Positions 1-19,495 of a stretch of 19,495 bases of DNA are shown one piece after another (positions within the stretch are counted from its first letter, which is position 1; each line of letters begins with the position of its first letter). The notes under the pieces were generated by a model. The model searched no databases. It was not told where the DNA came from and was given only the letters and a program-made list of their open reading frames with translations. A program made the position numbers and the translations under genes. Location: positions 1 through 19,495 of the forward strand of contig JAKLKB010000158.1 in the NCBI GenBank assembly GCA_023150835.1. The letters are read 5' to 3'. The DNA comes from Myxococcota bacterium (GTDB taxonomy: Bacteria; Myxococcota_C; UBA6777).

Positions 1-139
1 GCAGCGTCTGCATTTCGTGCATACAGCGTGCGTCATGAAAAAACAAAATCCCCGATGCTTCCGACTTTCGCTCCCTCCCCTGTTCACGGGGGAGGGCGGG
101 GTGGGGGGCTTTCCTCCGCTTCACCTAACGCCTATGGGG
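1..139 (+). repeat. 139-bp repeat block, left copy (perfect inverted copy at 14410-14548)
   Basis: Read base by base, positions 1-139 are the exact reverse complement of 14410-14548, without gaps (position n pairs with 14549-n). The match breaks at position 140. The block holds a GC-rich hairpin around CTCCCCTGTTCACGGGGGAG (roughly 71-92). The window begins inside or at the edge of this copy, so its left limit is unknown. It has no credible coding content; the short open frames across it lack ribosome binding sites and read through the hairpin. Confidence 0.9.
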
Positions 140-277
140 CTTTGCCCCACGCTCCACCATAGGCTGTCACCCCTTGACCCCAAGAGGGGCGAACAGAGCA
201 CTGTTTTTCAACCAGACGAATTTCTTGCTTGAACGGGTGCGAACATGGCTTTTTTTGCTCTCCGCGTAGCCACTGCT
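135..277 (+). repeat. Composite hairpin repeat, copy 1
   Basis: This starts with the hairpin TGGGGCTTTGCCCCA (135-149), continues through a CCCCTTGACCCC segment, then the 20-mer AGAGCACTGTTTTTCAACCA at 195-214. It ends in CGAACATGGCTTTTTTTGC (240-258) followed by a degenerate CTCCGCGTAGCCACT. The same order of parts occurs at 1084-1227, and the tail resembles the right end of the element at 5458-5573. The remainder of the gap up to 472 (about 278-472) shows no recognisable feature apart from the ribosome binding site of the next gene. Confidence 0.75.
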
Positions 278-3540: not shown

Positions 3541-5427
3541 ATGTACTGGATGCGACGTGTAAGGCGAGTGTGTTTGTGGGCGGCTCTTTGGGGGGCCGTC
3601 GTGGCAGGATTTGGCGCGTGTGTTGTGGGTGGCAGCGGCAATGAACAAGAGTGCAAAGCAGACACCGACTGCACAGCGCCACGCAAGTGTTTGGGCGGAT
3701 ATTGCAGGGATTTAACACAGTCGAACACAGAAAAATCAGATGTGGAACAGCAGGGCGAGGCTCGACTTGACGGAGATCCTAACGAGTCTACATCGCAAGA
3801 GCCGATAACACCGACCGATGCGCCCTCCGAATCCATCACGCCGACAGAGACGCCCGCTGAAACGACTGATCCAGAACAATCGGTTAACCCCGAAGAATCG
3901 GCGTCTGTGGAGATCGGCCCGACAGATGCTTCTCCCGACGAATCGAACCCCACAGAAGCCACCATAGAACGCCTTCCTACGGAGCTTTTGCCCGAGGATG
4001 GTGGATGGCCCCAAGACGCCGAACCGATCGTTGAAACTACCCCAGAGCCTGCTTGTAGCGGAAGCCAAGTGCTTTGCGGGAACGTCTGTGTCAGCTTACA
4101 AACGAGTCCACAACACTGCGGAGGATGCGGAAAATCCTGTTGCGTAGGGCAGATCTGTTCGGCAGGGCAGTGCGCGTTGGCATGCCCAGCGGGGCAAAGC
4201 GCTTGTTCTAGAGAGAATGGATGTCCGTTTTGTGTGGATATTTCGAGAGATACGAATCATTGTGGGGTTTGCAACCGATCGTGCGGTAGTGGACAAGTTT
4301 GTGTGAGCGGGAGATGCGCTTGTTCGAGTGGTACGTTGTGCAACGGGGTGTGTGTCGATCTGCAAACAAATCGCGATAACTGCGGTGGCTGCGGGAAAAA
4401 ATGCGCAAGCGGTCAAGTTTGCTCGAATGGTGTTTGCCAGCTTGGTTGTCCGATGAGTGCGCCGCTTTGCGGAACGGGGGCCTCTGCTTCGTGCTGTAGC
4501 AACACTTGTTGTAGCGGGGTTTGTGCGAATCTGCAAACGAACGATGCGCACTGTGGAGCGTGTGGGACGGCTTGTAGCGGTGGGATGACCTGTCAAAGCG
4601 GTATGTGCCGTTGTCCTTCGGGTCAGACTTCTTGTAATGGAGTGTGCGTCAGTACTTCTCAAAACAACGCACACTGCGGAGGATGTAACGTGGCCTGTGG
4701 TGCCAGCCAGACTTGTTCATCGGGTCAGTGTGTGTGCATCGCGGGCTATTCGTCGTGCAGCGGCGTGTGTGTCAACTTGACAAGCGATAACAACCATTGT
4801 GGCGGTTGTGGCTTGCGTTGCCCGCTTGTCGCGCCTTGTAGCGCAGGTGCGTGCAAGTGCATCAATACTTTACGCACGCTGTGCGGTTCGACGTGCGTCG
4901 ATCTCCAAAGCAGCGCCTCGCATTGTGGAGCGTGCGGAAATGCTTGTTTGGGGGGGCGCATATGCAGCGGCGGGGCGTGCGTTTGCCCGACAGGGACACA
5001 GCTTTGCGGTGCGGTGTGTACGGATCTCACCACCACCGCGAATTGTGGGACGTGCGGAAACGCTTGTGGGACAGGTCAATCGTGTGTGGGTGGCGTGTGT
5101 ACTTGCCCGACAGGACAGACCTTTTGTGGAGGGGCGTGTGTCAACACAAGCACCAACAATGCGCATTGTGGGGTGTGTGGGAACGCTTGTGCGGCAGGGT
5201 CGAACTGTGAGAGCGGCGCGTGCAAATGTACCGACACCACCAAGACGTATTGTTCGGGAGCGTGTGTGAACGTACAAACGGATGATTCGAACTGTGGGAC
5301 GTGTGGGAAGAAGTGTACCTTTGAACAGATCTGCACGCTCGGGATCTGCAAATGCAACGGACCTATCTGCAAGGGCGTGTGTTGTTTTGAAGGGTCGTGT
5401 GCCAGCGGTTTTTGTGTTCCGTTGTAA
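3541..5427 (+). CDS. Lipoprotein with about ten Stig1-like cysteine repeats
   Basis: A signal sequence with a lipobox-like GFGAC puts the lipidated cysteine at C27, so the protein should be membrane-anchored on the far side of the inner membrane. Next comes a short four-Cys motif (ECKADTDC...KC...YC, about 38-56), then a Pro/Thr/Glu/Ser-rich spacer (about 60-170). From about 173 to the end are ten units of roughly 40 residues plus a short last one. Each follows C-x-G-x-C-V-[DN]-L, then [NH]-C-G-x-C-G, then three spaced cysteines. The spacing closely resembles plant Stig1 domains and repeats common in myxobacterial surface proteins. No enzyme motif is seen; adhesion or matrix binding is a guess. 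Unit 2 is irregular and unit 4 has a CC insertion. The start is ATG 3541 or ATG 3550; both leave the lipobox intact. Confidence 0.85.
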   Translation: MYWMRRVRRVCLWAALWGAVVAGFGACVVGGSGNEQECKADTDCTAPRKCLGGYCRDLTQSNTEKSDVEQQGEARLDGDPNESTSQEPITPTDAPSESITPTETPAETTDPEQSVNPEESASVEIGPTDASPDESNPTEATIERLPTELLPEDGGWPQDAEPIVETTPEPACSGSQVLCGNVCVSLQTSPQHCGGCGKSCCVGQICSAGQCALACPAGQSACSRENGCPFCVDISRDTNHCGVCNRSCGSGQVCVSGRCACSSGTLCNGVCVDLQTNRDNCGGCGKKCASGQVCSNGVCQLGCPMSAPLCGTGASASCCSNTCCSGVCANLQTNDAHCGACGTACSGGMTCQSGMCRCPSGQTSCNGVCVSTSQNNAHCGGCNVACGASQTCSSGQCVCIAGYSSCSGVCVNLTSDNNHCGGCGLRCPLVAPCSAGACKCINTLRTLCGSTCVDLQSSASHCGACGNACLGGRICSGGACVCPTGTQLCGAVCTDLTTTANCGTCGNACGTGQSCVGGVCTCPTGQTFCGGACVNTSTNNAHCGVCGNACAAGSNCESGACKCTDTTKTYCSGACVNVQTDDSNCGTCGKKCTFEQICTLGICKCNGPICKGVCCFEGSCASGFCVPL

Positions 5428-14324: not shown

Positions 14325-14409
14325 TTTGTCCGATCGTTGGACTTGTACGATATCCGAGCGATGTGTGTGTGCGTAGACGCCCTGTGGTTAGGCAGCCACA
14401 CCTGTCTGC

Positions 14410-14548
14410 CCCCATAGGCGTTAGGTGAAGCGGAGGAAAGCCCCCCACCCCGCCCTCCCCCGTGAACAGGGGAGGGAGCGAAAGTCGGAAGCATCGGGGA
14501 TTTTGTTTTTTCATGACGCACGCTGTATGCACGAAATGCAGACGCTGC
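14410..14548 (-). repeat. 139-bp repeat block, right copy
   Basis: This is the exact reverse complement of positions 1-139. It forms the larger part of the insert (14401-14650) that splits the family A element. Identity over the whole block without a mismatch points to recent duplication or gene conversion. Confidence 0.9.
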
Positions 14549-14559
14549 CGTTCCAACTT

Positions 14560-14577
14560 CCCCCCGTTCACGGGGGG
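14560..14577. repeat. GC hairpin CCCCCCG-TTCA-CGGGGGG
   Basis: A perfect 7-bp stem with a TTCA loop lies just outside the 139-bp block. It shares the CCCC-GTTCAC-GGGG core with the hairpin inside that block, so the insert carries two related palindromes. Confidence 0.75.
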
Positions 14578-14625
14578 ATTGAGGGGGGGAGAACAAAAAA
14601 AGGCGATCAAGACCGACTCTACGAG

Positions 14626-14654
14626 GTTTCCACCTTAACAAGGCGCGTATGGGG
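14626..14654 (+). repeat. 29-bp repeat, inverted copy at 19465-19493
   Basis: The sequence beginning GTTTCCACCTTAACAAGG and ending CGCGTATGGGG is the exact reverse complement of 19465-19493. It forms the right edge of the 250-bp insert. Beyond it the two copies differ: here the family A half-hairpin follows, whereas at 19456-19468 the GGGGC-TTT-GCCCC hairpin does. Confidence 0.85.
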
Positions 14655-14698
14655 GCTGCCCCTACATTTGGGCGCACACAATGGGCGGATTTCGTATT

Positions 14699-14811
14699 AT
14701 ATGAAATCCGCAAGATGTGTGATCGAAGGATCGTGCGTAGATGCCCTACGGTTGGGCAGCCACAGGGGGCTGCCCCTACATTTGGGCGCACACAATGGGC
14801 GGATTTCGTAT
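14699..14811. mobile_element. 113-bp MITE-like element, family A, intact copy
   Basis: The ends ATATGAAATCCG (14699-14710) and CGGATTTCGTAT (14800-14811) match at 11 of 12 positions as inverted repeats. The internal hairpin GGGCAGCC-ACAGG-GGGCTGCCC is intact. It lies 10 bp beyond the stop of the minus-strand gene ending at 14822, so the hairpin could mark that transcript's end. Confidence 0.75.
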
Positions 14812-14821
14812 AAGTCCGATG

Positions 14822-15349
14822 TTAATTCAATAATTCCCCGCTGCTTTGGGGATTTTGATCGTGTTCTTGTTCTGTTGGTGCGCCTGTGAACCAGAGGGGC
14901 TGTTCGGGTCCGAGTTTTTTGAGGATATCGAGTTGTTCGAAGCGGTACCCTGTTTCAGCAAAGAACAGGCTGTTGTGGTCGTTGCTGCGCTGCGCGATGA
15001 AAAGGATGGGATCGCCATTGCGGTTGTAGCCGAGCTGGATCAGTGCATTTTTCGGAAATTTGCCGTCAGGTGTCGAGAGTTCTTCGCGCAGAAAATAAAA
15101 CCCCTGATCGAGAAGGGGTTGAAGAGCGGCGAGAAAAGCGTCGTCGTTTTCGATGCCGGGGCCTTGTTCGTGAAAGTTCCAGACGTTGTGCGTATTTTCG
15201 CGGGGTAGCTGCAACATCGGGATATCTCGGTTGGAATGGTTGTGAAACATGACCAAAATTCCCGCAGGGATATCGGTTTCTTGGCCTTTGAGGGCGCGGC
15301 CTGTTCGATAAAGTCCGCAGGGCGGGAGTGTTGTCTTTCCTTTGCTCAT
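14822..15349 (-). CDS. Hypothetical protein with internal duplication
   Basis: This 175-residue protein has no signal peptide and no recognised family. It is built of two related halves. Residues 12-63 and 83-134 align without gaps at an offset of 71, sharing G-x-Y, a Leu, then Pro-x-x-x-Leu, N-x-D, and R-x-N-x-H-N followed by F-x-E-x-G. The pattern of short strands and turns suggests two small beta modules. The start ATG at 15349 has AAGGA 8 nt upstream; the open frame continues back to 15457 but that extension is Gln/Thr/Pro-rich and overlaps the spacer. It is third in a same-strand row after the genes at 16452-19277 and 15485-16291, with a 135-bp gap to its upstream neighbour. Function unknown. 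Confidence 0.75.
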   Translation of the reverse strand: MSKGKTTLPPCGLYRTGRALKGQETDIPAGILVMFHNHSNRDIPMLQLPRENTHNVWNFHEQGPGIENDDAFLAALQPLLDQGFYFLREELSTPDGKFPKNALIQLGYNRNGDPILFIAQRSNDHNSLFFAETGYRFEQLDILKKLGPEQPLWFTGAPTEQEHDQNPQSSGELLN

Positions 15350-15484
15350 GGTGTTTTCCTTGTGGAGGGGGTGGCGTTGTACGAGAGGCTTTTGCTTGGT
15401 CGGTCTCTGCGTCGTTTGGTTGTGACTTTGGGTGGGGCTTGTGGCGTGGGATGTCAAGGAAAAACAGGTGAGAGAGGGCAGCGG

Positions 15485-19277: not shown

Positions 19278-19317
19278 GGGTTTGCGGCTCCGTGTGTTGG
19301 TGGAATGAGGGTGATGT

Positions 19318-19453
19318 TGTTGGTTTGTTTGGTTTGTTTGGTTTGTTTGGTTTGTTTGGTGTGTTTGGTTTGTTTGGTTTGTTTGGTTTATTTGGTTTGT
19401 TTGGTTTGTTTGGTTTGTTTGGTTTGTTTGGTTTGTTTGGTTTGTTTGGTTTG
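19318..19453. repeat. 9-bp tandem array, unit TGGTTTGTT, about 15 copies
   Basis: An almost uninterrupted array of the 9-mer TGGTTTGTT fills most of the space upstream of the large lipoprotein gene, with rare variants (TGGTGTGTT, TGGTTTATT). It is open in several frames only because the unit is a multiple of three; the resulting Asn-Lys-Pro or Cys-Leu-Val strings are not credible proteins. It starts about 40 bp before the ATG at 19277, so it would lie in or next to that gene's promoter or leader. Confidence 0.9.
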
Positions 19454-19455
19454 TG

Positions 19456-19493
19456 GGGGCTTTGCCCCATACGCGCCTTGTTAAGGTGGAAAC
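19456..19493 (-). repeat. Hairpin plus 29-bp repeat end at window edge
   Basis: GGGGC-TTT-GCCCC (19456-19468) is the same hairpin as at 135-149 and 1084-1100. It overlaps the 29-bp sequence (19465-19493) that is inverted at 14626-14654. The element probably continues past the window end. Confidence 0.75.
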
Positions 19494-19495
19494 AC

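What the first reader, a model, noticed from the sequence alone, without database searches (positions are those of the whole stretch)
14345..14697. Nested insertion exactly at the hairpin loop of a family A element
The two element halves, joined without 14401-14650, restore the junction seen in the neighbouring intact copy. The insert holds the 139-bp block, a second GC hairpin and a 29-bp edge that recurs at 19465-19493. Targeting of a hairpin tip is characteristic of some REP-associated or palindrome-seeking elements, so this may be a repeat that inserts into repeats.
Basis: partly seen in the sequence, partly recalled or inferred. Interest (0 to 1): 0.6.

Follow-up and report, generated by a model that had tools for sequence, protein, structure and literature searches.

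The report
Mini-transposon nesting in other repeats' palindromes
The insert is one of many copies of a short gene-free mobile DNA that lands on an 11-base palindrome (GGG-five bases-CCC), which in this bacterium is supplied mostly by two other repeat families; the target rule looks like that of a known transposon group (IS231), so it is a tidy new example rather than a new kind.

Summary
The insertion is real, but its edges and interpretation need correcting. The mobile unit is 14413-14651 (239 bp, no gene, imperfect inverted ends CATAGGCG.../...CGCGTATG). Its terminus occurs 152 times in the host genome and 35 times in a sister species (a Myxococcota MAG), and in none of three other family members. 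Of 55 complete copies, 39 have identical 11-bp flanking repeats; 38 of these read GGGN5CCC, and 52 of 55 have GGGN5CCC on at least one side. The five central bases differ between copies but match within a copy (38 of 47; shuffled mean 4.9, maximum 16), which proves target-site duplication. The restored site lies in repeat family B in 37 copies, family A in 13, neither in 5. One of those five interrupts an ORF at GGGCTGTCCCC, so the palindrome is read, not the repeat. The whole palindrome is duplicated, so this is a staggered cut of double-stranded DNA, not insertion at a loop tip. The CAT ends, TAA at positions 15-17, 11-bp duplication and GGGN5CCC target resemble the IS231/ISH8 groups of the IS4 family. 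No partner transposase with these ends was found.

The parts
14413..14651 (+). Complete mobile unit (called M here), 239 bp, no ORF of its own; T2-type end CATAGGCGTTAGGTGAAG at left, T1-type end CTTAACAAGGCGCGTATG at right
   Evidence: Boundaries from 55 complete copies and their target duplications
14402..14412 (.). Left target duplication, altered (CTGTCTGCCCC instead of GGGGCTGCCCC)
   Evidence: Sequence; CACCTGTCTGCCCC is a natural family A variant (27 occurrences against 83 of CAGGGGGCTGCCCC in the sample), so gene conversion or a chimeric join is likely
14652..14662 (.). Right target duplication GGGGCTGCCCC (GGGN5CCC)
   Evidence: Sequence; 38 of 39 exact duplications have this form
14345..14401 (+). 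Left part of the interrupted family A repeat, beginning with its terminal repeat (GTACGATATCCG; consensus ATACGATATCCG)
   Evidence: Family A consensus, own-genome copies
14663..14697 (+). Right part of the interrupted family A repeat, ending CGGATTTCGTAT
   Evidence: 47-bp identity with the neighbour, consensus
14698..14811 (+). Neighbouring uninterrupted family A copy, showing the empty site CACAGGGGGCTGCCCC
1..136 (-). Second M copy cut off by the contig start (T2 end outward)
   Evidence: 100% reverse complement of 14410-14548; contig C102 is exactly the window
137..147 (.). Target duplication of that copy, GGGCTTTGCCC, in a family B repeat
19457..19467 (.). Target duplication of a third M copy, GGGCTTTGCCC
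19468..19495 (-). Third M copy cut off by the contig end (T1 end CATACGCGCCTTGTTAAGG)
   Evidence: 29-bp identity with 14626-14654; terminus search

Best explanation
M is a miniature, gene-free DNA transposon (MITE). A DDE transposase supplied in trans, most likely of the IS4 family and of the IS231/ISH8 kind, binds its CATA-starting ends and moves it by cut and paste. It makes a staggered cut at the edges of an 11-bp palindrome GGGN5CCC; filling the gaps duplicates the palindrome on both sides. In this genome most GGGN5CCC sites outside genes lie inside two more abundant repeat families (A and B), so M nests in them. Shown: family, ends, 11-bp duplication, target rule, hosts, independent insertions in a sister species. 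Inferred: the transposase family, cut and paste, movement in trans.
For: Many copies with shared ends: 152 matches to the 18-bp T1 terminus. 55 complete copies: 39 exact 11-bp duplications, 38 of them GGGN5CCC; hosts B 37, A 13, neither 5. Five central bases match within a copy in 38 of 47, shuffled mean 4.9 and maximum 16 in 10,000. Every T1 end examined in the sister genome abuts GGGN5CCC (24 of 24, 15 distinct loci in one set). One insertion restores an open frame at GGGCTGTCCCC outside any repeat, and the reference M copy contains no GGGN5CCC. GGGN5CCC is rare elsewhere: 273 sites outside A, B and M in 1.67 Mb. Table 1 of PMC2266710 gives IS231 ends CAT-------AA--TAA and duplications of 10-12 bp, and ISH8 ends CAT with T15 and 10 bp; M's T1 end CATACGCGCCTTGTTAAG has CAT, T15, A16 and A17.
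Against: No transposase gene with M's ends was found. The five DDE_Tnp_1 (PF01609) loci of the genome carry no such ends within 1.5 kb, the sister genome has no PF01609 match, and the one IS4-family gene that passes its curated cut-off has other ends. M lacks the AA at positions 11-12 of the IS231 end consensus. About a quarter of the complete copies have altered or unlike flanks, and one (893 bp) duplicated ACCCTCACCCC.
Confidence: 0.8

Rival explanations
1. The transposase recognises an extruded hairpin or cruciform, as palindrome-seeking elements (IS1272 of the IS1182 family, or RAYT/REP systems) do, rather than the base sequence GGGN5CCC.
For: Nearly all targets can form a short GC stem-loop; the B target folds well (z -3.6). 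The first and fifth of the five central bases usually pair.
Against: IS1272 leaves no duplication (PMC5678879), whereas M leaves exact 11-bp duplications. Flanks are direct, not inverted (38 direct; 3 inverted, two of which are a single substitution). Y1 transposases are nearly absent. One copy used ACCCTCACCCC.
Confidence: 0.12
2. The transposase reads the host repeats themselves (family A/B sequence), so M is a dedicated hyper-parasite of those families.
For: 50 of 55 hosts are family A or B.
Against: A and B share little beyond the palindrome (consensus); one insertion lies in an ordinary ORF at GGGCTGTCCCC. The bias can follow from where non-coding GGGN5CCC lies and from selection against insertions in genes.
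Confidence: 0.06
3. The 250-bp segment is an ancestral part of a long form of family A, lost from the short copies.
For: Joining the halves restores a family A copy.
Against: Most copies lie in family B, with variable but paired 11-bp duplications; the sister species has its own insertion in the same spacer, in another palindrome.
Confidence: 0.01

Closest known systems
IS231 subgroup of the IS4 family (IS231A and its derivatives)
   Same: 5'-CAT ends with TAA at 15-17, duplication of 10-12 bp (PMC2266710), target consensus GGGN5CCC (Hallet et al. 1994, from memory; paper not held), repeated insertion into the ends of other transposons (PMC1626470)
   Different: M has no transposase gene, lacks AA at 11-12, lies in a Myxococcota lineage (IS231 is nearly confined to the Bacillus cereus group), and its hosts are two MITE-like families rather than Tn3-type ends
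ISH8 subgroup of the IS4 family
   Same: CAT ends with T15, about 10-bp duplications
   Different: ISH8 insertions show no apparent target specificity; M's do
Bacterial MITEs such as Chunjie, QMITE2, MITEAba12
   Same: Short, gene-free, inverted ends, many mostly intergenic copies, target duplication (PMC10969869)
   Different: M targets a strict palindrome carried by other repeats
IS1111 in the REP-like palindrome of QMITE2 of Coxiella burnetii
   Same: A mobile element inserted into a palindrome inside another MITE (PMC10969869)
   Different: Different enzyme class (IS110/IS1111 type, target chosen by a seekRNA; PMC11187229 title and abstract); only two insertions cited
IS1272 (IS1182 family)
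   Same: Targets inverted-repeat structures (PMC5678879)
   Different: Leaves no target duplication and replaces the repeat

Membership tests
MITE (miniature inverted-repeat transposable element) | Short element without a transposase gene | tested here: met
   239 bp here, mostly 150-280 bp in other copies; no coding region
MITE (miniature inverted-repeat transposable element) | Terminal inverted repeats | tested here: met
   CATACGCGCCTTGTTAAG and CATAGGCGTTAGGTGAAG, imperfect
MITE (miniature inverted-repeat transposable element) | Target-site duplication | tested here: met
   39 of 55 exact 11-bp; pairing against shuffles
MITE (miniature inverted-repeat transposable element) | High copy number, mobilised in trans by a related transposase | tested here: inconclusive
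   Copy number met; no partner found
IS4 family, IS231 subgroup | Ends CAT-------AA--TAA | tested here: inconclusive
   CAT and TAA at 15-17 met, AA at 11-12 not met (compare)
IS4 family, IS231 subgroup | Direct repeats of 10-12 bp | tested here: met
   11 bp
IS4 family, IS231 subgroup | Target consensus GGGN5CCC | tested here: met
   52 of 55 copies; the IS231A consensus itself is from memory
IS4 family, IS231 subgroup | Single-ORF DDE transposase with YREK motif | tested here: not met
   M encodes none; no partner with its ends was found. Membership is therefore not claimed, only likeness
REP/RAYT system | Short palindrome mobilised by a Y1 (RAYT) transposase | tested here: not met
   Only two Y1 matches near the cut-off; M has an 11-bp target duplication
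IS1182/IS1272 inverted-repeat replacement | No target duplication; inverted repeat replaced | tested here: not met
   Exact direct 11-bp duplications (PMC5678879)

The most novel reading that the evidence does not exclude
A layered repeat ecology: a young MITE that uses the palindromes of two more abundant MITE-like families as landing pads, so that those repeats shield genes from the younger one; the transposase may read DNA shape (a bent or extruded GGGN5CCC palindrome) rather than sequence alone, and may belong to an undescribed lineage since no known partner was found.
Probability: 0.2. Interest if true: 0.55.

Novelty: new member of a known kind. Interest (0 to 1): 0.38.

Why it matters
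It shows from one assembly, with more than 50 complete insertions, that a gene-free element obeys a strict 11-bp palindromic target rule, and that other repeats supply most of the usable sites outside genes. It gives a clean natural data set for IS231-like target choice in a group far from Bacillus, and it explains why this and many other contigs of the assembly end inside the element.

Tried and rejected
Long form of family A: rejected (variable paired duplications, family B hosts, independent insertion in the sister species). REP/RAYT mobilisation: rejected. Inverted-repeat replacement as in IS1272: rejected (direct duplications). IS4-family gene of contig C103 (L062) as partner: rejected, its inverted repeats are CTCGCTACATGACAG. 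Autonomous copy sought by exact GGGN5CCC duplications around 0.3-8 kb with CA...TG ends in the sampled DNA: none convincing; the longest complete element, 893 bp in L289, carries simple repeats and no transposase. Genome-wide pattern scan with 15 fixed bases: mostly chance, one true hit (L175). Plasmid search: no match. Rfam: one sub-threshold match (S4-Clostridia leader, 24.5 bits against 37.5) taken as chance.

Full report
What was checked. The 139-bp block and the 29-bp edge recur as stated, both in inverted orientation, at the two ends of the window. The window is a whole contig (C102) of a 7.56-Mb assembly in 239 pieces, and both its ends lie inside copies of the same element. Many other contigs also end in it (for instance C75, C114, C195 and C228).

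The element. Searching the own genome with the 250 bp gave about 40 matching places, all those the tool scored, most 90-98% identical over all or most of the query; an 18-bp terminus alone gave 152 places with up to 2 mismatches and none for the reversed control. Alignment shows conserved outer ends, CATACGCGCCTTGTTAAGG (T1) and CATAGGCGTTAGGTGAAGC (T2), with deletions and replacements inside. Complete copies mostly range from about 150 to 290 bp; the two largest confirmed are 568 bp (sister species) and 893 bp, the latter filled with simple repeats. None of those read holds a transposase gene.

Target duplication. From 100 stretches totalling 1.65 Mb of the own genome plus the earlier loci, 55 copies had both ends and both flanks. 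In 39 the 11 bases before the first C of the element equal the 11 bases after its last G; 38 of these read GGGN5CCC, and one reads ACCCTCACCCC. At least one side reads GGGN5CCC in 52 of 55. The middle five bases vary between copies (CAGCG, CGCTG, GCTGC, CGTTG, TTTCA and others) but agree within a copy in 38 of 47 pairs, against 4.9 expected after shuffling and never more than 16 in 10,000 shuffles. This is the signature of a duplicated target. In the sister genome G001, which is the Myxococcota MAG KLAP109, all T1 ends examined abut GGGN5CCC (24 of 24, 15 distinct loci in one set). Three further genomes of the family lack the terminus.

Which sequences are interrupted. Profiles of family A (about 118 bp, terminal repeats ATACGATATCCG) and family B (about 170 bp, ends near AGGAGTnACGCAGTT) were built and run on the restored empty sites: 37 copies lie in B, 13 in A and 5 in neither. 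One of the five restores an uninterrupted reading frame of 115 codons around GGGCTGTCCCC, so the palindrome alone suffices. In the sampled DNA GGGN5CCC occurs 237 times in A (overlapping matches counted), 112 times in B, 239 times in ORF space and 34 times in other spacers. Sampling favoured contigs that carry the element, so occupancy rates are only relative, but B sites are clearly used far more often than ORF sites; preference and selection against gene disruption cannot be separated here. The reference M copy has no GGGN5CCC (its GC hairpins have the opposite polarity, CCCC...GGGG), so it is not its own target; 1 of 41 complete copies has one inside.

The window copy. With the rule known, the element is 14413-14651, the right duplication 14652-14662 (GGGGCTGCCCC) and the left one 14402-14412 (CTGTCTGCCCC). 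The left one is altered, and its sequence, CACCTGTCTGCCCC, is a natural variant of family A (27 occurrences against 83 of the intact form in the sample). Gene conversion of the left half by another family A copy, or a chimeric assembly join, explains it. The family A hairpin is GGGCAGCC-ACAGGG-GGCTGCCC. In the sister species the same spacer, next to the orthologue of the gene at 14822-15457 (85% identical), carries the same kind of element in GGGTGACACCC followed by a family-B-like end, instead of the family A pair: an independent event.

How it works. A target duplication of about one helix turn, CAT ends, and TAA at positions 15-17 are published marks of the IS231 and ISH8 groups of the IS4 family (Table 1 of PMC2266710), whose studied member IS231A moves by cut and paste (same paper). 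IS231A prefers GGGN5CCC (Hallet et al. 1994, from memory; cited but not quoted in PMC2266710), and IS231 elements have repeatedly landed in the ends of other transposons (PMC1626470), with bent DNA at the site playing a part (PMC3299598). The best reading is a MITE moved in trans by such an enzyme. The enzyme was not found: five PF01609 loci in the own genome and none in the sister genome, none with these ends. The IS4-family gene of contig C103 has other ends. Repeated elements are often lost from metagenome assemblies, so the absence is weak evidence.

Verdict. The idea of a repeat that inserts into repeats is supported; the idea of loop-tip targeting by a REP-type system is not. The kind of thing is known; the nesting into two other repeat families on a strict palindrome, in a lineage far from Bacillus, is a new and well documented example.

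Noticed in passing
137-147 and 19457-19467: The cut-off element copies at the two contig ends are in the same orientation and both carry GGGCTTTGCCC. Joined end to start they would make one element with a matching duplication, as a circular molecule or an excised segment would. GGGCTTTGCCC makes up about 11% of family B sites, so chance is quite possible.
   Followed up: partly
933-1066, 14345-14697, 14698-14811: Family A (about 118 bp, ends ATACGATATCCG, 435 profile hits in 1.67 Mb) looks like a MITE itself; its own transposase and target were not sought.
   Followed up: no
1068-1230 and 1474-1606: Two inverted copies of family B (ends near AGGAGTnACGCAGTT, 224 profile hits in 1.67 Mb), the main host of the element; also MITE-like.
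   Followed up: no
L290:10597-10764: An element copy whose flanks are reverse complements (GGGCGCTGCCC and GGGCAGCGCCC) instead of direct repeats, differing at three positions; perhaps an inversion or a chimeric join.
   Followed up: no
L289:9074-9966: An 893-bp complete copy with an exact duplication of ACCCTCACCCC, a non-palindromic target, swollen by GGAAAGTAC-like and GGGGGGATTGA-like simple repeats.
   Followed up: partly
19312-19455: Long array of a 9-base unit (TGGTTTGTT), with a GTGTGTT and a TTTATTT variant, directly beside the element at the contig end.
   Followed up: no
3541-5427: A 628-residue ORF with many short cysteine-rich CGGCG-type repeats, apparently a secreted protein.
   Followed up: no
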